From NCBI GenBank assembly GCA_002162095.1, contig CP021424.1, positions 1,674,001-1,738,000 on the forward strand: DNA of 64,000 nucleotides, given 5' to 3'. Below are positions 32,029 through 59,407 of this stretch, one piece after another. The notes beneath the pieces are model-generated. The model had not been told where the DNA came from, did no database searches, and was given only the letters and a program-made list of their open reading frames with translations. The first letter of the stretch is position 1; each line of letters begins with the position of its first letter. The translations under genes were made by a program, and so were the position numbers. Source of the stretch: Armatimonadetes bacterium Uphvl-Ar2 (GTDB lineage: Bacteria > Armatimonadota > Fimbriimonadia > Fimbriimonadales > Fimbriimonadaceae).

Positions 32029-32198
32029 CCCCGGGCGGGGCAGGCGCGTCTGCAAGGCAGATTGCGGTGAGAAGTGCAATTTTGGGGGAAAGGATTGACC
32101 TTTTACATCGAACTGTCCACACTAAGCGCATGAGAGGCTGGTCAGTCTGGCTTTTGGTGTTGACCTTGGTGGGCTGTGTGAGCCTGGGGCTCGCGCAG
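32018..32198 (+). repeat. Cassette-array repeat, left boundary copy (promoter plus A signal peptide only)
   Basis: Shares with the later copies the stop-codon region GAAGCTGTAACCCC, the leader TCTGC-AAG-GCAGA, the ATTGCG/TGCAAT pair, the TTGAC box and the first 23 codons of the A gene (MRGWSVWLL...LAQ). It lacks the B-gene part found in the internal copies and so marks the left edge of the duplicated block. Confidence 0.8.
32095..32129 (+). promoter_or_regulatory. Promoter of A1, apparently leaderless
   Basis: TTGACC (32095-32100), 17-base spacer, CACACT (32118-32123), then 6 bases to the ATG. The -10 is a poor match to consensus, but its place is conserved in all four copies. With normal spacing, transcription would start at or next to the ATG. 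No Shine-Dalgarno sequence exists. Upstream lie a TCTGC-AAG-GCAGA mini-hairpin and ATTGCG-N8-TGCAAT (32061-32080). Confidence 0.5.
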
Positions 32199-33479
32199 CC
32201 CGGAGGGCCAGGTAGACCTGGTGGCTCCGGAGGTACGGAAGAGCAGAACTTCCCGGGGACGTGGCCGTTTTCCGGCAGGGCAACCGGATCACATGATGGT
32301 ATGTCATGGACGGTCATACTCAGAGCCAGTGTGAACTGTGTCTACAGTGTCAATGGAAGCGCGCCACGCTACATCTCAGGAGGCAATAACCACGTAAAAG
32401 TCGTTGGTTTTGAACCAAAATCAGTTCCTTCGGCCCTTGAGTTCAAGATTATCAAACTTGAGATGAAGATTGGGGGGAACCTCATCACACAATGGGCGCC
32501 GATGTTGCCTGCTCAACATGGCGATCCGAATCAGTACAAAGCTGTCCGATTCACATCGGCAATATTTGCCCATGACACAAATATTGTAGTTGAAGTGAAA
32601 GCAAGATTCCTAGTCCGCCGAACTGACGTGATCGGGAGTCAGTGGTCAGGGGAATTACAAGTTGTCGCAACTGAGACGGTTAGGGCCTACAACGTTGGCC
32701 TCAATTGGCAGACCTCGACAGACCAAGAAGGGGTAATCATGACCGCACCCCGGTCATACGCTGACCAGGCGCAGGAAGCAGGCGCTGGACAACGAACAAT
32801 CCTTGGCACCATGAATCATCGAGTGGAAATGCCTAGTCCGATGTCAGCCACCGCCGCACAAATTCTTCAGATATACATCGGTCGAGCCACCCTTTTGGTG
32901 CCAAACACGCATGGGGACATTGAAAAGTCCTACCTATTTGACAGTTATCAAAACGGAGCTTTATACGCGACAATGACTGCAAAGCGAGATGAGGCTGTAG
33001 CCAATGGCTTTCCCAAGGCAAACATGGCGCTGCTAATGGCCTCCTGGACGGGGCGACCATTGCATGATGTCCTGGCGGGTACGCCCGAGTTCGTAAATCT
33101 GGGTACGGGCGGAATCCTTTGGAGTCTTGCCTATGCCGACACGGCATCCGATGAAGTGTCAGCTTTGCCTCCCCATCGCCCGATCTCTGAACTGTATATT
33201 GAAGCCACGAGGCAAATGGCCGAGGGTCGCTTTGCGAATGAAATTCCGGCATTGTCCGAAGTTGCTTCAGGTTCCACCTATACGGGAGTGTATGCAAAGG
33301 ATCCCGAAAGTGACGCCTACTGGTGGATTCCGAGGAACCTTGAGTTCTTTGGCGATGGGAATCAACGTTTAGGGCACGTCTATATGGACCGCGAGCAACG
33401 AATGAACTTTGAAAACCGAAACGCGGATACAAGGTTGTGGTATCTGGTGCTTGACCCGAACGATCTGCGAGGCGAATGA
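32130..33479 (+). CDS. Cassette protein A1: secreted, caspase/gingipain (C25)-like fold, catalytic Cys replaced
   Basis: 449 residues. The signal peptide MRGWSVWLL...GLAQ has both a lipobox-like LVGC (C16) and a possible signal peptidase I site after GLA. A Gly/Pro linker (PGGPGRPGGSGG) follows. A conserved beta-rich domain (EFKIIKLEMKIGG) precedes the putative catalytic region: TLLVPNTHG (H261), and about 43 residues later LLMASWTG, where other family members have GCFS; the expected Cys is S305. After it come GTGGILWSLAY and EFFGDGNQRLGHVYM, like the GDP motif late in C25 peptidases. This copy may therefore be an inactive paralogue. The fold is inferred, not shown. The stop overlaps the B1 start. 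Confidence 0.75.
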   Translation: MRGWSVWLLVLTLVGCVSLGLAQPGGPGRPGGSGGTEEQNFPGTWPFSGRATGSHDGMSWTVILRASVNCVYSVNGSAPRYISGGNNHVKVVGFEPKSVPSALEFKIIKLEMKIGGNLITQWAPMLPAQHGDPNQYKAVRFTSAIFAHDTNIVVEVKARFLVRRTDVIGSQWSGELQVVATETVRAYNVGLNWQTSTDQEGVIMTAPRSYADQAQEAGAGQRTILGTMNHRVEMPSPMSATAAQILQIYIGRATLLVPNTHGDIEKSYLFDSYQNGALYATMTAKRDEAVANGFPKANMALLMASWTGRPLHDVLAGTPEFVNLGTGGILWSLAYADTASDEVSALPPHRPISELYIEATRQMAEGRFANEIPALSEVASGSTYTGVYAKDPESDAYWWIPRNLEFFGDGNQRLGHVYMDREQRMNFENRNADTRLWYLVLDPNDLRGE

Positions 33480-34663
33480 TGACGAGTTTTTTGTTACTTA
33501 CGGCCTTGGTCAGTTCTGGCGAACCAGGCGTAAGCCCGGACCTCGAGCGTATAGACGGCATTGCAGATCGCCTGCTAAGATGGTACGGCATTGAGGCAGG
33601 GTTAGGCAGCCCCCGGGAATTGGATACAGGTCCGTACCGCGCTATGATGCCTAGGATATTCGGACCGGAGGGAATGAGTCGTATCGAGCCGAGCCCGGAG
33701 TGGAAGTCGTTTGCCAGAAGTTCGAAGATGACCTTTGCGTCAGGAGAGGCTGTGTACCAAGACCTCATGTACTCTTGGAACGTCAATAGGCCATTTCTGA
33801 GAACAGTTAGTGTGGGGTTATTGAACGATCCTGACCGCCGCCACAACATGCAGGATCCGAAGTCGTGGCGGTTTGAGGACCTGGATGCCGCTCGGGGCCA
33901 TGCCTGGAGTGTGGTGGATATGCTGCAGGTTTACGGCAAGTCGTGGGACATAGTTCTTTTTAACGAAAACTCACGATATGAAGATCCAACCCCTTCCTAC
34001 CAGTTCGGTGTGAACTGGAACGGCTTCGTCGGCATCTGGGGGTTTGGCTTCGTCGTCCACCGCACCACCGGCCTGATCTCGAATCTGAGCTTCCAGGGTC
34101 CGTTGCTGGATGAGCCGCCGCAAGGCGAGCCCATGGAGGAGGCGGACGCCAAGTACCTGGCCAACAACGAGGTGCGCCGGCACATCTTCAAGCCCCTGAT
34201 GCTGGTGGGAAGCCGCAAGATATTGAGCCCCTACAACCCGGTGGACGCGGAGGGCAATGTGCGCTTCCTCGCCGTGCCGGTCTACGAGTTCCAATACGTT
34301 GAGCTGACGGAAGACGGGCAGAGAAATCCGGAAGGAGGTCGCTACCTTGCTTCGGTGGACGCCATTAGCCAGAAGGTACTGGGCGTCAACCTGATTGAAG
34401 GCAGTGCGGGCGTGCTGCGCAACCCGGCCCCCTTGCCCGCGTTTACGTTCAACGTGGCCTACGGGGAACTCCAACTGCGCGAACGGAAGGTGAACCTGCT
34501 GGCTTGCACCCCCCTCACCAAGCTGACGGCCAAGCCGGACCGCACGGGCTGGTACAGCCAGGGCGACTTCCTTTTCCCCGTGGCCTACAACGAAGCCACC
34601 GGCGAAATGGAGATCCGCACCCCGGACCAAGTGCGCTACTACCGCCTGCCACCCACGCCCTGA
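33476..34663 (+). CDS. Cassette protein B1: partner of A1, possible PepSY/YcdB-like repeats
   Basis: 395 residues, start overlapping the A1 stop (ATGATGA), so the pair is translationally coupled. A short hydrophobic N-terminus (SFLLLTALVSS) suggests export. Residues up to about 120 are specific to this copy; from RRHNMQDPKSWRFED onward the protein is nearly identical in all four copies. Two segments end in strand-TG-strand patterns (FGFVVHRTTGLISNLSF and RYLASVDAISQKVLGVNLI) that resemble PepSY/YcdB-type repeats, often found in peptidase propeptides; this is a weak inference. No catalytic motif is visible. Ends LPPTP because a 30-bp insertion supplies an early TGA. Confidence 0.75.
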   Translation: MMTSFLLLTALVSSGEPGVSPDLERIDGIADRLLRWYGIEAGLGSPRELDTGPYRAMMPRIFGPEGMSRIEPSPEWKSFARSSKMTFASGEAVYQDLMYSWNVNRPFLRTVSVGLLNDPDRRHNMQDPKSWRFEDLDAARGHAWSVVDMLQVYGKSWDIVLFNENSRYEDPTPSYQFGVNWNGFVGIWGFGFVVHRTTGLISNLSFQGPLLDEPPQGEPMEEADAKYLANNEVRRHIFKPLMLVGSRKILSPYNPVDAEGNVRFLAVPVYEFQYVELTEDGQRNPEGGRYLASVDAISQKVLGVNLIEGSAGVLRNPAPLPAFTFNVAYGELQLRERKVNLLACTPLTKLTAKPDRTGWYSQGDFLFPVAYNEATGEMEIRTPDQVRYYRLPPTP

Positions 34664-34665
34664 GG

Positions 34666-34690
34666 GGGCGGGCACCTTCTGTTCCCGCCC
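34666..34690 (+). terminator. GC hairpin after B1, within a 30-bp insertion
   Basis: GGGCGGG / CCCGCCC with an 11-base loop just after the B1 TGA, identical after B2 and absent after B3 and B4. No T-tract follows, so it may reduce read-through or stabilise the mRNA end. Confidence 0.4.
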
Positions 34691-34768
34691 GCGAAGATGT
34701 AACCCGGGGCGAGGGAGGCGCGTCTGCAAGGCAGATTGCAGTAAGAAGTGCAATTTTCGGGGAAAGGA

Positions 34769-34804
34769 TTGACTTTTTTTTTCAGACCTGTCCAAACTAA
34801 GCGC
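34769..34804 (+). promoter_or_regulatory. Promoter of A2 with T9 tract
   Basis: TTGACT (34769-34774), spacer of 18 including a run of nine T (34774-34782), CAAACT (34793-34798), 6 bases to the ATG. Upstream inverted repeat ATTGCA-N8-TGCAAT (34735-34754) may be an operator, and TCTGC-AAG-GCAGA precedes it. Confidence 0.5.
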
Positions 34805-36088
34805 ATGAGAGGCTGGTCAGTCTGGCTTTTGATGTTGACTATGGTGGGGTGTGTGAGCCTGGGGCTCGCGCAACCAAGCCCGCCGGGCGTCCGGACGTTC
34901 GTGAACACGGCATCCGGTGAACATAACGGCGTGAATTGGAATGTCGAGTTAACCGGTGAGATGGACTATGTGACCACAACAGGCCTTATCTCAGGTGGCA
35001 ACAATCATGTGCGGGTGGTGGAATTTGAGTACGGCTCAAGTCCGAATTCCCTTGCATTCGAGATCGTGAGGCTCGAAATGAAGATCGGTGGGATAAGCGT
35101 TGACCAATGGGCTCCAGCTGACCCGGATGACTGGAAGGACATCAACAAGTACTTTCCCGTTCGTTTTGCTTCGGCTAAATTTGCCCATGGGGCCGCCGTC
35201 CCGGTCGAGATCAAGGCTAGATTCAAAGTTCGGCTGGCGAATCCAATCAACAGCCCGTGGTCTCCCGAAGCCGAAGTCACGGCGACTACGAGTGTGACGG
35301 CTCACAACGTTGCGCTGAACTGGCAGACGACTGTAAACGCGTATGGTAATACTGTCACTGGAATCAACAGCTATCCCGGTCAAGCACAAGCTGCCGGCAA
35401 CGGCCAGCGTCCTCTTCTTGGCTCAATGAAGCACCGTGTGGATATGCCAAATCCCACAAATGCTACAGCTTCCGGAATTCTACAATTTTGGATGGGTCAG
35501 ACGACATTTTTGGTTCCCAATACGCATGGTTGGGCACAGGGGCTTTGGGACAGTACGACTAACGACGTTTTCTTGACTGCAATGGCCGCAGAAAGGTCGG
35601 CTGCTGTGGCGGCGGGTTATCCTCGGGCCAACATGGCATTGGTGATGGGGTGCTTTTCCGATCAGCCTCTCGCAAGCCATTTGTTGGGAAGTCCGGAGTT
35701 TGCAAATTTTGGAACTCATGGTCTACTCTGGAGCCTGAGCTACTCGAACTCGGCGCCAGCGACCGCGTCGGATGTTCATCCTACACGGCCAACATCTTCA
35801 CTATATATTTCGGCAGTCAAACTGATGGCCGATGGTGCGTTCGCGGATGAAGTACCTGATCGCACAGAAACTCGCACGAAGTCGACCTTTACTGAAAACT
35901 TGGAGTGGGATGAACTAACCGAGGAGGGGTGGTGGATTCCAATTAACCTGCAACTGCATGGTAGCGAGACTCAGCGTCCGAATCATGTATTTATGGACGA
36001 TGTGCAGCGACAGCACTTCTATAACATTCAAGCGAGTACAGCACTTTGGTACTTGGTTGTCGACCCAACGAATTTGCGAGGGCAATAA
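34805..36088 (+). CDS. Cassette protein A2: secreted, putative C25/caspase-like cysteine enzyme
   Basis: 427 residues. Signal peptide as in A1 with LVGC-type C16, but the linker is short (QPSPPGVRTF) and lacks the Gly-rich run. The first 170 residues are very close to A3. The putative dyad is H241 in TTFLVPNTHG and C283 in MALVMGCFSDQPL, separated by 42 residues, followed by FGTHGLLWSLSY, which in CHAT/C25 proteins corresponds to the strand after the Cys loop. The late motif is degraded (LQLHGSETQRPNHVFM). Substrate unknown. TAATG overlap with B2. Confidence 0.75.
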   Translation: MRGWSVWLLMLTMVGCVSLGLAQPSPPGVRTFVNTASGEHNGVNWNVELTGEMDYVTTTGLISGGNNHVRVVEFEYGSSPNSLAFEIVRLEMKIGGISVDQWAPADPDDWKDINKYFPVRFASAKFAHGAAVPVEIKARFKVRLANPINSPWSPEAEVTATTSVTAHNVALNWQTTVNAYGNTVTGINSYPGQAQAAGNGQRPLLGSMKHRVDMPNPTNATASGILQFWMGQTTFLVPNTHGWAQGLWDSTTNDVFLTAMAAERSAAVAAGYPRANMALVMGCFSDQPLASHLLGSPEFANFGTHGLLWSLSYSNSAPATASDVHPTRPTSSLYISAVKLMADGAFADEVPDRTETRTKSTFTENLEWDELTEEGWWIPINLQLHGSETQRPNHVFMDDVQRQHFYNIQASTALWYLVVDPTNLRGQ

Positions 36089-37272
36089 TGACAAGTCTTA
36101 CACTAGTGGCAGTTTTGGCGCTTGGCCAAGCCGAGATTGCGAGTTCTGATATCGAACGGATTGATGCCATGTCTAGCCGAATGCTGACTTGGTATGGTTC
36201 AGAAGCTGGTCTGGGGAAGTTGCGCAACTTCGAACAGGGGCCATTTCGAGCCCTAGAGCCACAGATTTTTGGTTCTGAGGGAATGAGTCATGGTTCACCA
36301 AGCGTTGAATGGCAGCTGTTTGCCCGTAGCTCGTTGAGCAAGTTTGACACTGGGGAGCCAGTCTTCCAACAGATGATCTGTTCATGGGTTGGCACTAGGC
36401 CGTACCTGAGGTCGATGCGAACTGGATCGCCAAATGATTTTGACCGGCGCCACAACATGCAAGACCCCAAATCGTGGCGATTTGAGGACCTCGAAGCCGC
36501 CCGGGGCCATGCCTGGAGCGTCGTGGATATGCTTCAGGTCTACGACAAGTCGTGGGACATCGTGCTTTTCAATGAAAGCGCACGCTACGAGAACCCGATG
36601 GCCTCGTACCAATTTGGTGTGAACTGGAAGGGCTTCTCTGGCATCTGGGGGTTTGGCTTCGTCGTCCACCGCACCACCGGCCTGATCTCGAATCTGAGCT
36701 TCCAAGGTCCGTTGCTGGATGAGCCGCCCCATGGCGAGCCCATGGAGGAAGCGGACGCCAAGTACCTGGCCAACAATGAGGTGCGCCGGCACATCTTCAA
36801 GCCGCTGATGCTGGTGGGCAGCCGCAAGATTCTGAGCCCCTACAATCCGGTGGACGCCGAGGGCAATGTGCGATTCCTCGCGGTGCCCGTTTACGAATTC
36901 CAGTACGTTGAGCTGACGGAAGACGGACTGAGAAATCCGGAAGGAGATCGCTACCTCGCCTCGGTGGACGCCATCAGCCAGAAGGTGCTGGGCGTCAACC
37001 TGATCGAAGGCAGTGCGGGTGTGCTGCGCAACCCGGCCCCCTTGCCCGCGTTTACGTTCAACATGGCGTACGGGGAGATCCACCTGCGCGAACGGAAGGT
37101 GAACCTGCTGGCCTGCACCCCCCTCACCAAGCTGACGGCCAAGCCGGACCGCACGGGCTGGTACAGCCAGGGCGACTTCCTTTTCCCCGTGGCCTACAAC
37201 GAAGCCACCGGCGAAATGGAGATCCGCACCCCGGACCAAGTGCGCTACTACCGCCTGCCACCCACGCCCTGA
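36088..37272 (+). CDS. Cassette protein B2: partner of A2
   Basis: 394 residues starting MTSLTLVAVLALGQAEIA, a short export signal. The N-terminal third (for example SSRMLTWYGSEAGLGKLRNF) is related to but distinct from the other copies; from RRHNMQDPKSWRFEDLEAARG the sequence is almost invariant. At positions corresponding to residues 165-180 it reads RYENPMASYQFGVNW like B3, whereas B1 and B4 read RYEDPTPSYQFGVNW, so the copies are patchworks. The end LPPTP and the 30-bp hairpin insertion are shared with B1. Likely secreted with A2. Confidence 0.75.
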   Translation: MTSLTLVAVLALGQAEIASSDIERIDAMSSRMLTWYGSEAGLGKLRNFEQGPFRALEPQIFGSEGMSHGSPSVEWQLFARSSLSKFDTGEPVFQQMICSWVGTRPYLRSMRTGSPNDFDRRHNMQDPKSWRFEDLEAARGHAWSVVDMLQVYDKSWDIVLFNESARYENPMASYQFGVNWKGFSGIWGFGFVVHRTTGLISNLSFQGPLLDEPPHGEPMEEADAKYLANNEVRRHIFKPLMLVGSRKILSPYNPVDAEGNVRFLAVPVYEFQYVELTEDGLRNPEGDRYLASVDAISQKVLGVNLIEGSAGVLRNPAPLPAFTFNMAYGEIHLRERKVNLLACTPLTKLTAKPDRTGWYSQGDFLFPVAYNEATGEMEIRTPDQVRYYRLPPTP

Positions 37273-37274
37273 GG

Positions 37275-37299
37275 GGGCGGGCACCTTCTGTTCCCGCCC
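37275..37299 (+). terminator. GC hairpin after B2, within a 30-bp insertion
   Basis: Identical to the hairpin after B1 (GGGCGGG / CCCGCCC). No T-tract follows. Confidence 0.4.
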
Positions 37300-37377
37300 G
37301 CGAAGATGTAACCCGGGGCGAGGGAGGCGCGTCTGCAAGGCAGATTGCAGTGAGAAGTGCAATTTTCGGGGAAAGGA

Positions 37378-37415
37378 TTGACTTTTTTTTTTTCAGACCT
37401 GTCCACACTAGGCGT
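37378..37415 (+). promoter_or_regulatory. Promoter of A3 with T11 tract
   Basis: TTGACT (37378-37383), spacer of 20 including a run of eleven T (37383-37393), CACACT (37404-37409), 6 bases to the ATG. The spacer is longer than optimal for a housekeeping sigma factor, so this copy may be weak compared with A1, A2 and A4. Confidence 0.5.
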
Positions 37416-38702
37416 ATGAGAGGCTGGTCAGTCTGGCTTTTGATGTTGACCCTGGTGGGGTGTGTGAGCCTTGGGCTCGCGCAACCAAGCCCGCCGGGCG
37501 TCCGGACGTTCGTGAACACGGCATCCGGCGACCATAACGGCGTGAGTTGGAATGTCGAGTTGACCGGTGAAATGGACTATGTGACCACCACCGGTCTTAT
37601 CTCGGGCGGCAACAACCATGTGCGCGTGGTGAACTTTGCAACTGGGTCAAGTCCGAATTCCCTTGCATTCGAGATCGTGAAGCTCGAGATGAAGATCGGT
37701 GGGATCAGCGTTGACCAATGGGCGCCAACTGACTCTGCTGATTGGAAAGACATCAACAAGTACTTTCCCGTTCGTTTTGCTTCGGCTAAATTTGCGCACG
37801 GGGCTGCAGTGCCAGTCGAAATCAAGGCTAGATTTAAGGTGAGGCTTGCAGATCCGATTAACAGTCCGTGGTCTCCCGAAGCCGAGGTCACGGCTACCAC
37901 AAGCGCGACAGCGCATAATGTGGCGCTAAACTGGCAGACGACAGTCGATGACGAAGGATTGCCCGCCTTCGGCATCAACAGTTATCCTGGGCAAGCCCAA
38001 GCAGCTGGAACTGGTCAAAGATCTCGTTTGTCCGCAATGAAGCATCGAGTCGACATGCCAAACCCGACAAGCGCAACGGCCGCAGGAATCCTTGACCCTT
38101 GGATGCCGCAAACGACTTTCCTTGTGCCAAACACTCATGGTTGGTCAGCTGGACTTTGGGATAGTGCGTCAGGGATGGTGCAGTTTACTGGAATGGCCGC
38201 TGCAAGATCGGGAGGGGTTGCTAATGGGTATCCCCGCGCAAATATGGCTTTGATCATGTCTTGCTTCTCAAATGTTGCGCTTGGAGGGACGATATCTGGC
38301 ACTCCGGAGTTCGCAAATTTCGGTACTCCAGGGATACTCTGGAGCCTTAGTTACGTGCATACTGCTCCTGTCGTTGCTTCCAATATTCATCCGACTAGGC
38401 CGACTTCAAGAATTTATACTCAAGCCGTAAAGCTTATGGGTGATGGCTATTTCGCTGATGAAGTGCGTGATGATAGTGAAGCGTTGGCAGGATCAACTAT
38501 AACTCAAAATCTTTCCTACTTTCCGGGTAGTAATACCGGATGGTGGATACCAGCTGACCTCGAACTATATGGCGATTCCAATCAACGCCCAATGCATGTG
38601 TATATGCTAGAGGCTGAGCGAAACTTTATGGCTAACGCGAACTTGAGTACCGCACTGTGGTACCTAGTTATTGAGCCTGGAGACTATAGAGGTCAATCAT
38701 GA
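37416..38702 (+). CDS. Cassette protein A3: secreted, putative C25/caspase-like cysteine enzyme
   Basis: 428 residues, closest to A2 in the first 170 residues and then diverging. Signal peptide with C16. Putative dyad H241 (TTFLVPNTHG) and C283 (MALIMSCFSNVAL), then FGTPGILWSLSY and LELYGDSNQRPMHVYM. The part of the gene after about 38,000 is AT-richer: the 60 bases at 38401-38460 are 42% GC, against 68% at 39721-39780 in the conserved B3 end. Stop overlaps the B3 start (ATGA). Confidence 0.75.
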   Translation: MRGWSVWLLMLTLVGCVSLGLAQPSPPGVRTFVNTASGDHNGVSWNVELTGEMDYVTTTGLISGGNNHVRVVNFATGSSPNSLAFEIVKLEMKIGGISVDQWAPTDSADWKDINKYFPVRFASAKFAHGAAVPVEIKARFKVRLADPINSPWSPEAEVTATTSATAHNVALNWQTTVDDEGLPAFGINSYPGQAQAAGTGQRSRLSAMKHRVDMPNPTSATAAGILDPWMPQTTFLVPNTHGWSAGLWDSASGMVQFTGMAAARSGGVANGYPRANMALIMSCFSNVALGGTISGTPEFANFGTPGILWSLSYVHTAPVVASNIHPTRPTSRIYTQAVKLMGDGYFADEVRDDSEALAGSTITQNLSYFPGSNTGWWIPADLELYGDSNQRPMHVYMLEAERNFMANANLSTALWYLVIEPGDYRGQS

Positions 38703-39892
38703 CAAGCCTGCTTCTTTTCACATCATTTCTTGTTGCTGGTGATTCCGGACTTCAAGCGGACCTTGATCGAACGAATGCAATCGCCACTCGCATGTTGGAG
38801 TGGTACGGCACAGAGTCTGGTGGCGGGTCACTGCTTGGCTTGGAGCGAGGACCGTACCGCGCTCACGTTCCCAGAATCTATGGGCCTGAAGGGATGAGTT
38901 TTGCTGAGCCTAGCAGAGACTGGCAGAGGTTTGCTGTTAGTAGCCAGGGGTCATTTGACCGGGGAGAGCCGGTCTTTCAACAGCAGTTATTCTCTTGGGT
39001 CGAAGATCGTCCTTTCATGACATCCATTTCAACAGGCAATCCTGGAAAGGTTGACCTGCGCCACAATATGCAAGACCCGAAGTCGTGGCGGTTTGAGAGC
39101 CTGGATGCGGCCCGGGGCCATGCCTGGAGCGTGGTTGACATGCTTCAAGTCTACGACAAGTCGTGGGACATCGTGCTCTTCAATGAAAGCGCAAGCTACG
39201 AGAACCCGATGGCCTCCTACCAGTTCGGCGTGAACTGGCGTGGCTTTGTAGGTATCTGGGGGTTTGCCTTCGTCGTCCACCGCACCACCGGCCTCATCTC
39301 CAACCTAGGCTTCCAAGGTCCGTTGCTGGATGAGCCGCCCCATGGCGAGCCCATGGAGGAAGCGGACGCCAAGTACCTGGCCAACAATGAGGTACGTCGG
39401 CACATCTTCAAACCCCTAATGCTGGTGGGCAGCCGCAAGATTTTGAGCCCGTACAATCCGGTGGACGCCGAGGGCAATGTGCGATTCCTCGCGGTGCCCG
39501 TTTACGAATTCCAGTACGTTGTACTGACAGAAGATGGACAAAGGACAACGGAAGGAGATCGCTACCTCGCCACGGTGGACGCCATTAGCCAGAAGGTACT
39601 GGGCGTCAACCTGATCGAAGGCAGTGCGGGTGTGCTGCGCAACCCGGCCCCCTTGCCCGCGTTTACGTTCAACATGGCCTACGGGGAGATCCACCTGCGC
39701 GAACGGAAGGTGAACCTGCTGGCCTGCACCCCGCTCACCAAGATGACGGACAAGCCGGACCGCACGGGCTGGTACAGCCAAGGCGACTTCCTCTTCCCCG
39801 TGGCCTACAACGAAGCCACCGGCGAAATGGAGATCCGCACCCCTGACCAAGTGCGCTACTACCGCCTGCCTCCCACGCCCGCGAAGCTGTAA
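38699..39892 (+). CDS. Cassette protein B3: partner of A3
   Basis: 397 residues starting MTSLLLFTSFLVAGDSG, a likely export signal. Copy-specific to about residue 120 (MLEWYGTESGGGSLLGLERG), then the conserved block from LRHNMQDPKSWRFESLDAARG. It ends LPPTPAKL followed by TAACCCC and lacks the 30-bp insertion seen after B1 and B2; this is probably the ancestral end, because the same GAAGCTGTAACCCC stands before A1. No enzymatic motif is seen. Confidence 0.75.
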   Translation: MTSLLLFTSFLVAGDSGLQADLDRTNAIATRMLEWYGTESGGGSLLGLERGPYRAHVPRIYGPEGMSFAEPSRDWQRFAVSSQGSFDRGEPVFQQQLFSWVEDRPFMTSISTGNPGKVDLRHNMQDPKSWRFESLDAARGHAWSVVDMLQVYDKSWDIVLFNESASYENPMASYQFGVNWRGFVGIWGFAFVVHRTTGLISNLGFQGPLLDEPPHGEPMEEADAKYLANNEVRRHIFKPLMLVGSRKILSPYNPVDAEGNVRFLAVPVYEFQYVVLTEDGQRTTEGDRYLATVDAISQKVLGVNLIEGSAGVLRNPAPLPAFTFNMAYGEIHLRERKVNLLACTPLTKMTDKPDRTGWYSQGDFLFPVAYNEATGEMEIRTPDQVRYYRLPPTPAKL

Positions 39893-40063
39893 CCCCAGGC
39901 GGGGGCGGGGCGTCTGCAAGGCAGATTGCGGGGAGAAGTGCAATTTTGGGGGAAAGGATTGACTTTTTTTTTCAGACCTGTCCACACTAGGTGTATGAGA
40001 GGCTGGTCAGTCTGGCTTTTGATGTTGACCCTGGTGGGGTGTGTGAGCCTGGGGCTCGCGCAG
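39059..40063 (+). repeat. Cassette-array repeat copy 3 (B3 3' part, intergenic region, A4 signal peptide)
   Basis: Third internal copy. Its intergenic part lacks the 30-bp hairpin insertion and is closer to the region before A1 (AATTTTGGGGGAAAGG). Confidence 0.85.
39959..39994 (+). promoter_or_regulatory. Promoter of A4 with T9 tract
   Basis: TTGACT (39959-39964), spacer of 18 including a run of nine T (39964-39972), CACACT (39983-39988), 6 bases to the ATG. Confidence 0.5.
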
Positions 40064-41314
40064 CCCGGAGGGCCGGGTGGATCCGGAGGAACTGGTGGTC
40101 AGAACTTGCCTGGAGTCAAGACTTTTCAAGCAACTGTTTCAGGGATCCACGATGGGATTGGGTGGTCTGTTGATCTAATCGCGGAATTGGATTACGAAAC
40201 CGATCCTGGAGGATTGATTTCTGGTGGAAAAAACCATGTGCGTCTCGTCGACTTTAAAACAACATCTGACCCAGAGGCACTCGAGTTTGAGATCACGAAG
40301 TTAGAGATGAAGATTGGTGGGAACGAAATCACTCAATGGCCACCATCGAACCCAGCCGATAAGAAGGACATTACCAAGTACTTTCCAGTAAGATTTACAT
40401 CTGCAAAATTTGCACATGCATCGGCCGTAAATATAGTAATCAAAGCTACGTTTAAAGTTCGGCGAGTGACAATCATCAACAGCCCCTGGTCTGGGGAGTT
40501 TGAAATCTCAGCCACTAGGACGGTTACTGCTCACAACGTAGCGCTGAACTGGCAAACAACTGTAGATGATCAAGGATTATCGCAAACACATCCTAACAGC
40601 TATCCAAAGCAGGCCCAGTTTGCTGGCAGCAATCAGCGGCCGATTCTTGCCAACATGAAGCACCAGGTCGACATGCCCAATCCTACGACCGCAACTGCAG
40701 GCAATATTACCCAGAGTTGGATGACGAAGACAACTTTCCTCGTTCCAAATACGCACGGTTGGCCTCAGGGTTTGTGGGATAGCCAAACGGGAACTATCAC
40801 GCTATCGGACATGTTGGCCGCGCGCGCCGCAGGAGTTGCAGCTGGGTGGCCACGTGCTAACATGGCTCTTGTGATGGGATGTTTCTCCGACCAACCCTTA
40901 GGAGGAACTCTCGTTGGCACTCCTGAGTTTGCAAATTTCGGTACTCATGGCGTCCTTTGGAGCCTAAGTTATGCCAGGACTGTACCGAATGCGGAGTCAA
41001 GTAACCGCCCTACAAGGCCAACATCAGCTCTGTATATAGAGGCAGTTAGGCTAATGGCAGATGGTTACTTTGCCGACCAGATTCCCGGGCAGTCGGAAGT
41101 TGTCTCAGGTTCTACATACACACGAAACATTTGGTATGATGCGGACTCTGACGAAGGGTCGTGGATACCGATAAATCTTTCACTGTTTGGTGATCCGAAT
41201 CAACGACTGAAACACGTCTACATGAATGCAACCGAACGCATGTTTGTTTACCCCAACAACAACAAGTCGCTGTGGTATCTCGTTGTCGAGCCTGGTAACT
41301 ATAGAGGAAACTAA
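39995..41314 (+). CDS. Cassette protein A4: secreted, putative C25/caspase-like cysteine enzyme
   Basis: 439 residues. Signal peptide with LVGC (C16), then a Gly-rich linker PGGPGGSGGTGGQ like that of A1. This copy shows the proposed fold most clearly: H254 in TTFLVPNTHGW, a short TGTITLSDMLAAR helix, C296 in MALVMGCFSDQPL, then FGTHGVLWSLSYART, RPTSALYIEAVRLMADG and a good late motif LSLFGDPNQRLKHVYM. This order (HG, C, GV-SL, lfGDP) is that of C25 gingipain/CHAT-type cysteine peptidases. Cargo or substrate is unknown. Stop overlaps the B4 start (TAATG). Confidence 0.78.
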   Translation: MRGWSVWLLMLTLVGCVSLGLAQPGGPGGSGGTGGQNLPGVKTFQATVSGIHDGIGWSVDLIAELDYETDPGGLISGGKNHVRLVDFKTTSDPEALEFEITKLEMKIGGNEITQWPPSNPADKKDITKYFPVRFTSAKFAHASAVNIVIKATFKVRRVTIINSPWSGEFEISATRTVTAHNVALNWQTTVDDQGLSQTHPNSYPKQAQFAGSNQRPILANMKHQVDMPNPTTATAGNITQSWMTKTTFLVPNTHGWPQGLWDSQTGTITLSDMLAARAAGVAAGWPRANMALVMGCFSDQPLGGTLVGTPEFANFGTHGVLWSLSYARTVPNAESSNRPTRPTSALYIEAVRLMADGYFADQIPGQSEVVSGSTYTRNIWYDADSDEGSWIPINLSLFGDPNQRLKHVYMNATERMFVYPNNNKSLWYLVVEPGNYRGN

Positions 41315-42513
41315 TGGTCTGTGCATTAATATTTAGCTCGATCTTCTTATCGCCTTCTAGCGCTTGGGATCAGGATATTGAGCGAGCCAAAAGCATCTCG
41401 AGTCGGCTCATGACCTGGTATGGGAGTGAGGCTGGGTTAGGTTTGCCAAAGCAACTTGGGAAAACTCAGTTCGAGGCAATGTATCCGGCAGGCCTTGGCA
41501 GTGCGGGATTGAGGTTCGACCAGCCAGCAAGGGATTGGAAGAGTTTCACAATCAATCGACTTGTGTCGTACGATAGAGGCGAGCCAGTTATTGTGCGCGC
41601 TTGGCTGATTTCGTATGATACACGCGCATCGTTGGATTCCGTGACTGTGGGCGAGCCATTTAGATTCGATCTGCGCCACAACTTGCAAGATCCTAAGTCG
41701 TGGCGATTTGAGGACCTCGAAGCCGCCCGGGGCCACGCCTGGAGCGTCGTGGATATGCTGCAGGTCTACGACAAGTCATGGGACATCGTTCTATTCAACG
41801 AGAGCTCACGATATGAAGATCCAACCCCTTCGTACCAGTTCGGTGTGAACTGGAACGGCTTCGTTGGCATTTGGGGCTTTGGTTTCATGGTCCACCGCAC
41901 TACTGGTCTTATCTCAAATCTGAGCTTCCAAGGTCCGTTGCTGGATGAGCCGCCCCACGGCGAGCCCATGGAGGAGGCGGACGCCAAATACCTGGCCAAC
42001 AACGAGGTACGCCGCCACATCTTCAAACCGCTGATGCTGGTGGGCAGCCGCAAGATTTTGAGCCCGTACAACCCGGTGGACGCCGACGGCAATGTGCGCT
42101 TCCTCGCGGTGCCGGTCTACGAATTCCAATACGTTGAGCTGACTGAAGGCGGACAGAGGAATCCGGAAGGAAGTCGCTACCTCGCCTCGGTGGATGCCAT
42201 CAGCCAGAAGGTGCTGGGCGTCAACCTGATTGAAGGCAGTGCGGGTGTGCTGCGCAACCCAGCCCCCTTGCCCGCGTTTACATTCAACGTGGCCTACGGA
42301 GAAATCCACCTGCGCGAGCGGAAGGTGAACCTGCTGGCCTGCACACCGCTCACCAAGCTTACGGAAAAGCCGGACCGCACGGGCTGGTATAGCCAGGGCG
42401 ACTTCCTCTTCCCCGTGGCCTACAACGAGGCCACCGGCGAAATGGAGATCCGCACCCCGGGCCAAGTGCGCTACTATCGTCTGCCACCCGGAACGCAAGC
42501 TCAAGCCCGCTAA
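41314..42513 (+). CDS. Cassette protein B4: partner of A4
   Basis: 399 residues. The start MVCALIFSSIFLSPSSAW is a likely signal peptide and differs from the MTS start of B1-B3. The N-terminal third is the most divergent of the four (RLMTWYGSEAGLGLPKQLGK then FEAMYPAGLGSAG). The conserved block starts at LRHNLQDPKSWRFEDLEAARG; at RYEDPTPSYQFGVNWNGF it matches B1 rather than B2/B3. The C-terminus ends LPPGTQAQAR, unlike the others. This is the last cassette; no promoter-signal-peptide unit follows, only the ComM-type gene 50 bases on. Confidence 0.75.
   Translation: MVCALIFSSIFLSPSSAWDQDIERAKSISSRLMTWYGSEAGLGLPKQLGKTQFEAMYPAGLGSAGLRFDQPARDWKSFTINRLVSYDRGEPVIVRAWLISYDTRASLDSVTVGEPFRFDLRHNLQDPKSWRFEDLEAARGHAWSVVDMLQVYDKSWDIVLFNESSRYEDPTPSYQFGVNWNGFVGIWGFGFMVHRTTGLISNLSFQGPLLDEPPHGEPMEEADAKYLANNEVRRHIFKPLMLVGSRKILSPYNPVDADGNVRFLAVPVYEFQYVELTEGGQRNPEGSRYLASVDAISQKVLGVNLIEGSAGVLRNPAPLPAFTFNVAYGEIHLRERKVNLLACTPLTKLTEKPDRTGWYSQGDFLFPVAYNEATGEMEIRTPGQVRYYRLPPGTQAQAR
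41674..42513 (+). repeat. Cassette-array repeat copy 4, right boundary (B4 3' part only)
   Basis: Conserved block from CGCCACAAC to the region of the B4 stop. The intergenic promoter and A signal peptide are missing, so this is the right edge of the duplicated block. Confidence 0.8.
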
Positions 42514-57165: not shown

Positions 57166-57197
57166 TCTGGTATGGGTCTAAATACCTATAACTAGAT

Positions 57198-57208
57198 GGG
57201 GGGGGGGG
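57198..57208 (+). repeat. G11 homopolymer before the cassette A5 gene
   Basis: Eleven consecutive G between TATAAC (57187-57192, a -10-like box) and the A5 ATG at 57218. Homopolymers of this length slip during replication. An upstream ATG at 57196 lies directly before the tract: with 10 or 13 G it would be in frame with A5. Confidence 0.9.
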
Positions 57209-57217
57209 TATGGCAAT

Positions 57218-58543
57218 ATGAGAGATATGGGCAAGTTCTTGGCGGTTCTCGTCACCTGGCTGATGGTCCTTGTGGCCCTGGCTCAGGGCGGGCCGGGTGG
57301 ACCCGGAGGTCCAGGTGGGCAACCCACCCTCTCGGCGCAATTCAATCTGAACGATTGGATGGTGAACGAACCTGCGACGGATAAGAACCACTTTCCGGAT
57401 CAACTTCCCGCGGTTGAGGGCAACACCATTACCGTTGTCTATGACAAGGGCGGATCCGCTCAAGTTCAGCTGTTTTTTAGGAACAACAATCCGCAGCAGG
57501 CCTTTGTAGGACAATTGATTGTTGAGGATGCGCGGTACATCCATGACACTGCGCCGTTGCCGGTGCCCTGGGGTTCGCCGCCCCCGGTGACGATTCCGGA
57601 CACCATCCTGAGTGCTCCCACGGTCTACCTGAACGTTGCAAGTCTGGCAACGGCCCCGACGACGCTCACGATTTCGGGATTGCCCGCCTTCGTTACCAAG
57701 GGTCATATCCAGTTGCAGATGAGGGCAGAAGGCAACTTTGGTGCGCAAGTTGCGGGAAGCCAAAGCTTGGTGCCTTGGAGTGGAGGGCTAACGTCGCAGA
57801 AGGTACTGATCACTTATGCCCCGCCGACGGGTGTGATGGTCCCGGTTTGGACGGAGGTTGCGGAGTTATCTTGCACGATGGCACAAGGGGAAAGTACCCT
57901 CTTTGACGTCAATAGAGAATTAGTGAAGGGTTTGTACTTTGGCAATCTGTTCGCCTATAATCTAGGTACTGCTACAGCAAACTACTACAGCTCCCAAAAG
58001 TTCAAGCTAAAGAAATTTCTAAACCATACCATGCCAAGCGGTCCTGGTCCCGGCACACCGGCGCCTGGAAACTGCTTTGATGTTAACAGCTTTTTAATTA
58101 TCCTTCACCAATCTCAAGGCATCTCTGCATCAGGCCATCGAGTTCGAATGGGTCCAATGGGTGACGCGTTTGTAACAAATCTCTTCTGTCCGATTGGGTC
58201 AGACCCAATGGATAACACACTATTCGTTCGAGTCTACTTCATACTACATTTTCAGTGCATTGTTTCAGGAACTGTCAATGACGCTGCGATTGGATATTGG
58301 AACGATCTTGCTGGTCAAGTCTACAGAAATCCCGCGTGGGCATGGTTTGATACACCAAGCTGGCAAGTAATCAACGGTATGGAAGCATACGGGCTCACGT
58401 TACGAAGAAGACTTGCAGAGGATACAGATGTTCCACACCCGTTTCATCCCTTTACAGTTGCAAGCCTGTCGAATCTAGATCCAATGCAGGAGCCCAGGTT
58501 GTCGGAAGGTGTAGTGCGGACAGGACTATTGGTAGGTGATTGA
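57218..58543 (+). CDS. Cassette protein A5: secreted, transglutaminase-like
   Basis: 441 residues. A signal peptide ends VALAQ, directly followed by GGPGGPGGPGG, exactly the linker style of A1 and A4. The C-terminal half shows a transglutaminase-like order: Cys in GNCFDVNSFLIILHQSQG (C286), His in FILHFQCIV (H344) and Asp in TVNDAAIGYW (D355), which is the Cys-His-Asp triad pattern of that superfamily, though spacing is unusual. The N-terminal half is beta-rich. GC drops inside the gene (48% in 58141-58200). It is distantly or not at all homologous to A1-A4 outside the N-terminus. Start at 57218; 57227 is an alternative. Confidence 0.6.
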   Translation: MRDMGKFLAVLVTWLMVLVALAQGGPGGPGGPGGQPTLSAQFNLNDWMVNEPATDKNHFPDQLPAVEGNTITVVYDKGGSAQVQLFFRNNNPQQAFVGQLIVEDARYIHDTAPLPVPWGSPPPVTIPDTILSAPTVYLNVASLATAPTTLTISGLPAFVTKGHIQLQMRAEGNFGAQVAGSQSLVPWSGGLTSQKVLITYAPPTGVMVPVWTEVAELSCTMAQGESTLFDVNRELVKGLYFGNLFAYNLGTATANYYSSQKFKLKKFLNHTMPSGPGPGTPAPGNCFDVNSFLIILHQSQGISASGHRVRMGPMGDAFVTNLFCPIGSDPMDNTLFVRVYFILHFQCIVSGTVNDAAIGYWNDLAGQVYRNPAWAWFDTPSWQVINGMEAYGLTLRRRLAEDTDVPHPFHPFTVASLSNLDPMQEPRLSEGVVRTGLLVGD

Positions 58544-58546
58544 GAG

Positions 58547-59407
58547 ATGCTAGTGTTTCTGCTGATGTCGAGCCAGACAAGTTCGGCCCCGTTCGACGCT
58601 CTTTTCTCAGAAAGGGAATTCGCTATCGTCTCGGAAAACGAGGGCGACTACAGCCAAGACTCAGACGCGTATGGCCGTACCTCTAGCTTTGTACTGCTGT
58701 CCGAGAAAAATCGACTGAAGCTATCGCTAGAAACTACAGAATCGACGCGCGAGCCCCTTGCAGAACATGTCTCCCGCTTGGAGTCGTGTTCGCAGAATCC
58801 ATACAGAAATGCAAGTGGTGAGGCATTTGGGTTCATTGATCGCAATCCAATTGGTACTGTTGGAAGTCCCAGTGCTGACTCCATTTTCTTGCGGCTAAAA
58901 GGTTTTCGGGAGGGAGCGACCGCAGAATTGGAAGCGGGATCATGGTTTGTTGGTAGTGGATTGGTTACTGAGTTTTCTTGGATGCCAGTTGGCAATATCG
59001 GACGAAATGCCGATTGGGGCGAAACAAAGGCGAATTGGTTGGTTTTCCAAGGTGCTTTAATGCGTTGGCATCATAGCAAGATGGCAGGCTCATGGTTATA
59101 CTCAGACAACATCCAGCGCGTAGCCGGGAGAGAGATGGTCACCAAGGTGGATAAGAACCAGAACGTCTACGTGGACATGAACGAGCTGAGCCGCCACCGG
59201 GGCTGGACCTTCACCATCAGCCTGGAGCCCGCCCGCGCAGACGTCCGTATCGGCAACGATCACATCAAGATCTATCCCGGCGCGGACCGCATCCACATCA
59301 ACGACGAACTCGTCACTCTACCGGGCACCGTCCCCACTCAAGGCTACGGCGTCTACCTCCCGCTCCGGCTACTGCAAGAACGGGGTTACTTGCCCGCGGA
59401 GGGCTGA
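58547..59407 (+). CDS. Cassette protein B5: partner of A5, with a copper-amine-oxidase-N-like end
   Basis: 286 residues, 3 bases after A5. Short hydrophobic start (LVFLLMSSQTSSA). The N-terminal two thirds are AT-richer (45% GC at 58921-58980) and unrelated to anything I know. The end, from about residue 205 (NQNVYVDMNELSRHRGW) with VRIGNDHIKIYPGADRIHIN and YLPLRLLQERGY, resembles the copper-amine-oxidase N-terminal-like stalk domain, and its DNA is GC-rich (62% at 59161-59220). This mosaic copies the pattern of B1-B4. The end overlaps the convergent FGE gene by 22 bases. Confidence 0.6.
   Translation: MLVFLLMSSQTSSAPFDALFSEREFAIVSENEGDYSQDSDAYGRTSSFVLLSEKNRLKLSLETTESTREPLAEHVSRLESCSQNPYRNASGEAFGFIDRNPIGTVGSPSADSIFLRLKGFREGATAELEAGSWFVGSGLVTEFSWMPVGNIGRNADWGETKANWLVFQGALMRWHHSKMAGSWLYSDNIQRVAGREMVTKVDKNQNVYVDMNELSRHRGWTFTISLEPARADVRIGNDHIKIYPGADRIHINDELVTLPGTVPTQGYGVYLPLRLLQERGYLPAEG

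What the first reader, a model, noticed from the sequence alone, without database searches (positions are those of the whole stretch)
57218..59407. A second, diverged cassette carries a different cysteine-enzyme type
A5-B5 copies the architecture: signal peptide ending LAQ, Gly-Pro-Gly linker, coupled second secreted gene, GC-rich start of A and end of B with an AT-richer middle. But A5 looks transglutaminase-like (C286, H344, D355) and B5 ends in a copper-amine-oxidase-N-like stalk domain. This suggests a general scheme in which different secreted thiol enzymes are paired with different partner proteins.
Basis: partly seen in the sequence, partly recalled or inferred. Interest (0 to 1): 0.75.

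Follow-up and report, generated by a model that had tools for sequence, protein, structure and literature searches.

The report
Switchable secreted enzyme and partner genes
In a little-known phylum of bacteria, a secreted transglutaminase-like enzyme is encoded next to its own exported partner, and a slippery run of one repeated base in front of the pair looks like a genetic on/off switch of the kind known from pathogens.

Summary
A5 (57218-58543) belongs to an uncatalogued family. Profile-profile comparison places it next to the transglutaminase core, with C-C, H-H and D-D in register. B5 (58547-59407) ends in a copper-amine-oxidase-N domain. In the same order, 30 of 31 A genes are followed directly by a partner gene (the other is at a contig end). 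Paralogues in one genome share A's N-domain while the catalytic domain and partner diverge, so the pair changes as a module. Window A1-A4 are an unrelated, caspase-like family with an unrelated partner, yet have the same layout.

New: mononucleotide runs of 8 or more bases sit at the 5' end of 28 of 72 such genes, 44-fold above the rest of the DNA examined. In the whole genome a palindrome, TATAGGT-N6-ACCTATA, occurs six times, each 5-7 nt before such a run; A5 and A6 are two of the six. I read this as phase-variable, exchangeable, exported enzyme-partner pairs, most likely enzyme-inhibitor or toxin-immunity. Switching, enzyme activity and B's role are not shown. AlphaFold models failed.

The parts
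57171..57190 (+). Palindrome TATGGGT-CTAAAT-ACCTATA, 7 nt upstream of the G run; proposed operator or promoter element
   Evidence: Only match (<=2 mismatches) of TATAGGTN6ACCTATA in the window, 0 in 100 shuffles; one of six in the 2.63 Mb genome, all six next to a G/C run
57198..57208 (+). G11 run upstream of A5; proposed phase-variation tract
   Evidence: One of five mononucleotide runs of 8 or more in the window, four of which precede A-type genes; enrichment
57218..58543 (+). A5: signal peptide, Gly-Pro-Gly linker, N-terminal domain (about residues 36-200), transglutaminase-like domain (about 200-400) with C286, H344, D355
58073..58282 (+). Stretch holding the predicted catalytic codons Cys286 (58073), His344 (58247), Asp355 (58280)
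58547..59407 (+). B5: exported partner; variable N-domain (to about residue 182) and copper-amine-oxidase-N stalk domain (residues 201-278, nt about 59147-59380)
34774..34782 (+). T9 run in front of A2, between TTGAC and CAAACT
37383..37393 (+). T11 run in front of A3
39964..39972 (+). T9 run in front of A4
32067..42513 (+). A1-B1 to A4-B4: four tandem pairs of the unrelated caspase-like family, same layout (compared here, not re-examined in full)

Best explanation
A5-B5 is one cassette of a phase-variable set of exported enzyme-partner pairs. Shown by sequence: A5 is a divergent member of the transglutaminase-like (papain-fold) thiol enzymes behind a Sec-type signal and a separate N-domain, and B5 is its regular neighbour. 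Shown by comparison: paralogues in one genome keep A's N-domain nearly identical while the catalytic domain and partner diverge together, so the catalytic-domain-plus-partner module is exchanged or diversified against constant ends. Inferred from position and sequence: the G11 run, next to a genome-specific palindrome in front of A5, changes length by slippage and so switches or tunes expression of the pair. Inferred: A5 is a secreted protease or transamidase that acts on other cells or on cell surfaces. B5's N-domain is the cognate inhibitor or immunity protein that protects the producer's own envelope, held there by the stalk domain.
For: Enzyme: the catalytic triad is invariant. hhalign against Transglut_core members of 26 relatives gives score 34.4, P 1.5e-4, C/H/D in register; 0 of 450 column or block shuffles reach it (largest 22.0), and four unrelated profiles score 10-15. 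Pair: 30 of 31 loci in the order have the partner directly downstream, the other being at a contig end; 25 of the 30 match the B profile. Partners follow in other classes too. Asymmetry: extra or A-less B genes exist (B7, B8; A-B-B at L005, L039, L044, and L169), whereas no A with room downstream was found without a partner. Modularity: A5/A6 nucleotide identity is 0.74-0.99 in the N-domain windows after the linker, 0.38-0.67 in the catalytic domain, 0.27-0.54 in B's N-domain and 0.81-0.91 in the stalk. The constant-N, variable-C pattern recurs in G028, G011, G183 and G211, while the near-identical between-species pair G183_1/G180_1 is uniform at 0.94-1.0 apart from one A window at 0.83. Co-variation: catalytic domain with B given the N-domain, partial rho 0.31, permutation p 0.001, n=29. 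Switch: 28 of 72 A-type 5' ends carry a run of 8 or more, 1.06 per kb against 0.024 per kb elsewhere. 8 of 11 G/C runs of 8 or more in the genome precede a secreted-protein gene. Six of six genome-wide palindromes adjoin a run. The only G9-or-longer runs in G001 and G002 are at such pairs.
Against: No activity, toxicity, binding or switching is shown. Neither AlphaFold run gave a usable model (mean pLDDT 34 and 31). No profile or Pfam search identified A5 directly, and hhalign probability is only 51.5%. 44 of 72 A-type 5' ends have no run of 8 or more. The consensus scan found no promoter at A1 or A5. Tract-length variation is seen only between paralogues and between species, not within a strain. 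Co-variation is modest, and B also correlates with A's N-domain (partial rho 0.157, p 0.013). In the G180_1/G180_2 and G090_1/G090_2 comparisons all parts are diverged. Partners at three loci (L045, L046, L054) lack the stalk. The third pair family's first protein has no cysteine, which fits a toxin reading poorly.
Confidence: 0.5

Rival explanations
1. B5 is not an inhibitor but a structural partner or anchor. A is a surface enzyme, B its stalk-bearing scaffold or assembly partner, and phase variation serves surface change against phages, predators or competitors.
For: B5 ends in a stalk-type domain. The same palindrome-plus-run module precedes non-thiol pairs and a gene followed by a pilin-like gene (Pfam N_methyl, E 1.8e-5). 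Phase variation is classically a feature of surface proteins (recalled; the search listings show such papers).
Against: The stalk is absent from three partners. B-only genes exist without an A. B's variable part is its N-domain, which co-varies with A's catalytic domain.
Confidence: 0.27
2. A is a housekeeping secreted protease or transamidase for nutrition or envelope crosslinking, and B is its folding chaperone, propeptide in trans or substrate.
For: Known pairs place a protease next to a propeptide-like or lipocalin-like inhibitor (SpeB-Spi, staphopain-staphostatin; PMC2873492, passages). A1-A4 partners look PepSY-like (one weak Pfam hit, E 0.0099).
Against: Patchy distribution: 23 of 113 genomes of the order, 38 of 291 of the phylum. 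Within-genome diversification of catalytic domain and partner, and 5' runs, are not expected of housekeeping enzymes.
Confidence: 0.15
3. The 5' runs have no regulatory role; they are a mutational by-product of duplicated leaders, and the pairs are ordinary operons.
For: A1-A4 leaders are near-identical copies, as are c1-c3, so some runs share descent. No within-strain length data exist.
Against: Runs of G, C and T occur in unrelated leaders, in front of two unrelated A families, in several families of the phylum, both in promoter-like spacers and inside 5' coding sequence. Enrichment is 44-fold.
Confidence: 0.08

Closest known systems
MafB-MafI polymorphic toxin-immunity pairs of Neisseria (PMC4287609, passages)
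   Same: Sec-exported first protein with a conserved N-domain and variable C-terminal domain, a specific partner gene immediately downstream, extra cassettes, C-domain and partner change together
   Different: A5 has a transglutaminase-like domain retained in all copies, B5 is itself exported and has a stalk, and operator-plus-G-run switching is inferred here; no toxicity is shown
Polymorphic toxins with Tox-TGase or caspase-like domains (PMC3482391, passages)
   Same: Papain-fold transglutaminase and caspase-like domains used as C-terminal effector domains; arrays and extra immunity genes
   Different: A5 is a small two-domain protein with no RHS, filamentous or release-peptidase parts recognised; no listed immunity family matched B5 in Pfam
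Secreted thiol protease with adjacent inhibitor: SpeB-Spi, staphopain-staphostatin, Bacteroides C10 proteases with Bfi (PMC2873492, passages)
   Same: Secreted papain-fold enzyme with a small, fast-changing partner gene alongside, in some cases exported
   Different: No sequence relation detected; A5's catalytic domain diversifies between paralogues; runs at the 5' end
Transglut_core (PF01841) proteins
   Same: Cys-His-Asp in register over 66 aligned columns
   Different: No member passes a Pfam threshold; signal plus separate N-domain plus paired gene
Promoter-tract phase variation such as Neisseria porA (poly-G in the promoter; PMC3639595, abstract start in the listing)
   Same: A mononucleotide run in a promoter-like spacer
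   Different: Here the run precedes enzyme-partner pairs in bacteria of another phylum; switching is not demonstrated

Membership tests
Transglutaminase-like (papain-fold) enzymes | Cys, His, Asp triad in that order | tested here: met
   Invariant in 29 of 29; in register with Transglut_core
Transglutaminase-like (papain-fold) enzymes | Recognised by a family model | tested here: not met
   0 of 29 members match any transglutaminase-core model in Pfam at E<=5; no PDB profile hit to a transglutaminase
Transglutaminase-like (papain-fold) enzymes | Fold | tested here: inconclusive
   AlphaFold mean pLDDT 34 and 31; low-confidence secondary structure has a helix from residue 286 and strands holding H344 and D355
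Transglutaminase-like (papain-fold) enzymes | Protease or transamidase activity | not testable with these tools
   No assay
Cu_amine_oxidN1 stalk domain (in B5) | Family model match | tested here: inconclusive
   B5 E 4.9e-4, 20.4 bits against cut-off 24.2; 13 of 17 B proteins match; PDB profile hit E 1.5e-5
Polymorphic toxin-immunity system | Exported first protein with constant N-part and variable C-terminal effector part | tested here: met
Polymorphic toxin-immunity system | Cognate partner gene directly downstream, extra partner genes without the effector | tested here: met
Polymorphic toxin-immunity system | Toxicity neutralised by the partner | not testable with these tools
   No experiment
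Polymorphic toxin-immunity system | Known delivery or immunity domain | tested here: not met
   No Pfam or NCBIfam delivery or immunity domain in A5 or B5; PADLOC and PHROGs were not searched
Phase-variable (contingency) locus | Hypermutable-type repeat at promoter or 5' coding end | tested here: met
   G11 at A5; 28 of 72 A-type 5' ends, 44-fold enriched
Phase-variable (contingency) locus | Tract length varies within a population and changes expression | not testable with these tools
   Only paralogue and between-species differences seen

The most novel reading that the evidence does not exclude
Armatimonadota carry a phylum-wide class of contingency loci made of exported two-gene pairs: at least two unrelated thiol-enzyme families, plus non-thiol families, each with its own partner. 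In the window's genome the same operator-plus-poly-G module switches several of these families as one regulon, and catalytic domain and partner are exchanged as a module. The result would be a switchable, combinatorial repertoire of secreted effector-antidote or self-recognition proteins in environmental bacteria.
Probability: 0.35. Interest if true: 0.9.

Novelty: new variant of a known kind. Interest (0 to 1): 0.74.

Why it matters
Phase variation is known mostly from host-associated pathogens (recalled). Here the signature appears in a poorly studied phylum, on paired exported enzyme-partner genes of unrelated families under one apparent cis module. If confirmed, it would give a new uncatalogued transglutaminase-like family with a built-in partner (useful for finding specific enzyme inhibitors), a case of stochastic switching of effector-antidote pairs, and a simple genome signature (palindrome plus run) for finding more of them. 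It also makes direct predictions: tract-length heterogeneity in deep reads and cognate-specific A-B binding.

Tried and rejected
A5 as a diverged copy of A1-A4: rejected, no homology. Linker as the family mark: rejected. Phage origin: one IMG/VR scan with A5 found no relative; the phage and plasmid collections were not searched. Direct family identification of A5: Pfam, NCBIfam and PDB profile searches gave nothing relevant. The caspase-like family gave only a weak PDB hit (DUF4347, E 0.81). Fetching more A genes through the search for related loci failed because the alignments were too diverse. A consensus promoter scan found nothing at A1 or A5. Literature searches with Armatimonad and Fimbriimonas terms showed no paper on such pairs or on phase variation in this phylum (listings only). 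In one search the 5' anchor was the profile start, not hand-picked starts; the 72 5' ends include fragments, and an earlier count with hand-set starts was 23 of 52. One sequence in a wrong frame (L124) was dropped from the 30 Transglut_core loci before the hhalign test. The co-variation test used 29 pairs with readable A and B; other A loci were left out because A was broken, cut by a contig end, or not added.

Full report
What was checked. The window is G000:C1:1674001-1738000 of a 2.63 Mb, one-contig genome. Named relatives that carry the gene are Armatimonadetes bacterium Uphvl-Ar1, Fimbriimonadaceae bacterium ACE_ARM1 and Chthonomonas sp. UBA2017, so I place it in Armatimonadota, probably Fimbriimonadaceae. 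A5 and B5 are real ORFs at the stated places, three bases apart. A second pair, A6-B6, lies just beyond the window (A6 68% identical, B6 55%; A6 stop and B6 start overlap), and two further B genes, B7 and B8, stand in tandem without an A.

A5 is a transglutaminase-like enzyme by sequence. No family model recognises it. A 29-member alignment has six invariant columns: W211, Y247, C286, G301, H344, D355. The same C, G, H, D are kept in 29 of 29 A genes of complete pairs, a set that includes genomes outside the order. I compared the A5 catalytic region with 29 Transglut_core (PF01841) proteins from 26 relatives. hhalign aligned 66 columns with the three catalytic residues in register: score 34.4, P 1.5e-4, probability 51.5%. 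None of 450 shuffled profiles reached it (largest 22.0), and four unrelated profiles scored 10-15. The AlphaFold models are unusable, so the fold itself is unproven.

B5 and the pair. B5 has a variable N-domain and a C-terminal copper-amine-oxidase-N domain. In the order, A relatives occur in 23 of 113 genomes. At 31 A loci examined, 30 have a partner gene directly downstream on the same strand, 25 of them matching the B profile; the 31st is at a contig end. Three of the five partners without a profile match lack the stalk. In the phylum, 38 of 291 genomes match. Outside the order the partner again follows wherever I could read it, often with an SGxPxG-like motif (part of the output was cut). 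Extra partners occur (A-B-B at L005, L039, L044, L169; B7 and B8), while no A gene with room downstream was found without one.

The pair changes as a module. Between A5-B5 and A6-B6, nucleotide identity in 30-codon windows is 0.74-0.99 over A's N-domain after the linker, 0.38-0.67 over the catalytic domain, 0.27-0.54 over B's N-domain and 0.81-0.91 over the stalk (dS is mostly saturated in the middle and 0.16-0.74 in most of the outer parts). DNA outside the genes is largely dissimilar. Constant N-domain with diverged catalytic domain recurs within G028, G011, G183 and G211, and the stalk is conserved in G000 and G028 and less so in G011; in G183 the whole partner is diverged. The near-identical between-species pair G183_1/G180_1 shows no such step: all windows are 0.94-1.0 except one A window at 0.83. 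G161_1/G163_1 is more uniform than the paralogues but, apart from the differently called start, dips to 0.68-0.74 in two A windows. Across 29 pairs, similarity of the catalytic domain predicts similarity of B beyond the N-domain (partial rho 0.31, p 0.001); the N-domain also has a weaker partial correlation (0.157, p 0.013).

A general scheme. Window A1-A4 carry a His-Gly ... Cys pattern like caspase-fold enzymes (15-member alignment; window A1 and L070 lack the Cys). They are not related to A5, nor their partners to B5. Relatives occur in 15 of 113 genomes, and 17 of 17 non-window loci have a partner, three of them behind a broken A or after a gap. One partner has a weak PepSY hit (E 0.0099). 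I recall PepSY as a protease-propeptide domain; that is a lead, not a test.

The unexpected part: mononucleotide runs. In the 64 kb window only five runs of 8 or more exist, and four stand directly in front of A2, A3, A4 and A5. Using profile starts as neutral anchors, 28 of 72 A-type 5' ends (21 of 51 transglutaminase-like, 7 of 21 caspase-like) have such a run within -250 to +120 nt. That is 1.06 per kb against 0.024 per kb in the other 288 kb (7 runs), Poisson p 7e-36. Three settings appear. In the first the run lies between a TTGAC hexamer and a -10-like hexamer (A2-A4, L165, L167, L174, L077, d1, d2). By my count from the printed sequence, A1-A4 give spacers of 17, 18, 20 and 18. In the second the run lies 5-7 nt after the palindrome TATAGGT-N6-ACCTATA (A5, A6, c1-c3, L198). 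In the third the run lies inside the 5' coding sequence (for example L031, L033, L039, L170, L178), where slippage would shift the frame. Lengths differ between otherwise similar leaders: T9, T11 and T9; G9, G10 and G8; T6 against T8 at the close G183/G180 orthologues.

A genome-wide cis module. The 2.63 Mb genome has 11 G/C runs of 8 or more. Eight precede secreted-protein genes: A5, A6, three copies of a third pair family in a 1.7 kb-period array, two copies of a fourth, and a 119-aa gene followed by pilin-like genes (N_methyl). Three lie inside other genes. The palindrome (up to 2 mismatches) occurs at six places in the genome, and all six adjoin one of these runs (the reversed control pattern gave two matches on each strand). 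In the window it occurs once, against 0 in 100 shuffles. In the same genus, the single G9-or-longer run of G001 is at the third pair family and that of G002 (G13) is at the A5 relative. G028 has many more runs; of nine G028 loci viewed, three are caspase-like A genes by eye and the rest were not assigned.

How it most likely works. Tract slippage changes promoter spacing, leader or reading frame, so that a cell switches a given pair; cells of one population then export different subsets. A5 acts outside the cytoplasm as a thiol protease or transamidase. B5's exported N-domain neutralises it at the producer's envelope. Recombination at the constant ends swaps catalytic-domain-plus-partner modules. 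The module, pairing, triad and run enrichment are shown by sequence; slippage, switching, activity and neutralisation are inferred. The cysteine-free first protein of the third family and the pilin-like neighbour argue that the regulon is not only toxin-antidote, which is why the surface-protein rival keeps real weight.

Known relatives. Polymorphic toxins include transglutaminase and caspase-like effector domains (PMC3482391, passages). MafB-MafI of Neisseria has the same constant-N, variable-C plus partner logic (PMC4287609, passages). Secreted thiol proteases with adjacent inhibitors are known (PMC2873492, passages). A classification of papain-like families has no occurrence of 'armatimonad' (PMC10318531, term search). 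A5-B5 meets architectural marks of these kinds but no functional mark could be tested, so I file it as a new variant that works like them, not as a proven member.

Noticed in passing
L196:4639-9706 (G000:C1 about 2302638-2307705): Three-copy array of a third kind of pair: small secreted protein of 184-191 aa (no cysteine in the copy read in full), palindrome and G9/G10/G8 run upstream, overlapping 340-399 aa partner ('FPGGTGKEAAAW'); no convincing Pfam match.
   Followed up: partly
L199:684-4031 and L200:1187-2848: Fourth kind of pair ('YIGSxPxxGC', 156-161 aa) with a C8 run (G8 on the gene strand) between TTGACA and a -10-like hexamer, a 390-396 aa partner, and at L199 a further partner-like gene.
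   Followed up: partly
L198:2045-3945: Palindrome plus C8 run upstream of a 119-aa secreted Cys-rich protein, followed by genes with a pilin N-methylation motif.
   Followed up: partly
32127-33476 (A1) and L070: A1 and the G002 relative lack the Cys that other caspase-like members have; A1 is also the only one of the four window copies without a long T run.
   Followed up: no
L018:11403-13198: Two tandem B genes without an A directly behind a DUF1552-like gene (name recalled); possible orphan immunity genes.
   Followed up: partly
L203:2422-6500: Fifth caspase-like A in the genome with a partner and a second partner-like ORF downstream.
   Followed up: no
58541-58549: A5 stop and B5 start are in the same frame (TGA GAG ATG), so read-through would fuse the two; not conserved in A6-B6.
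   Followed up: no
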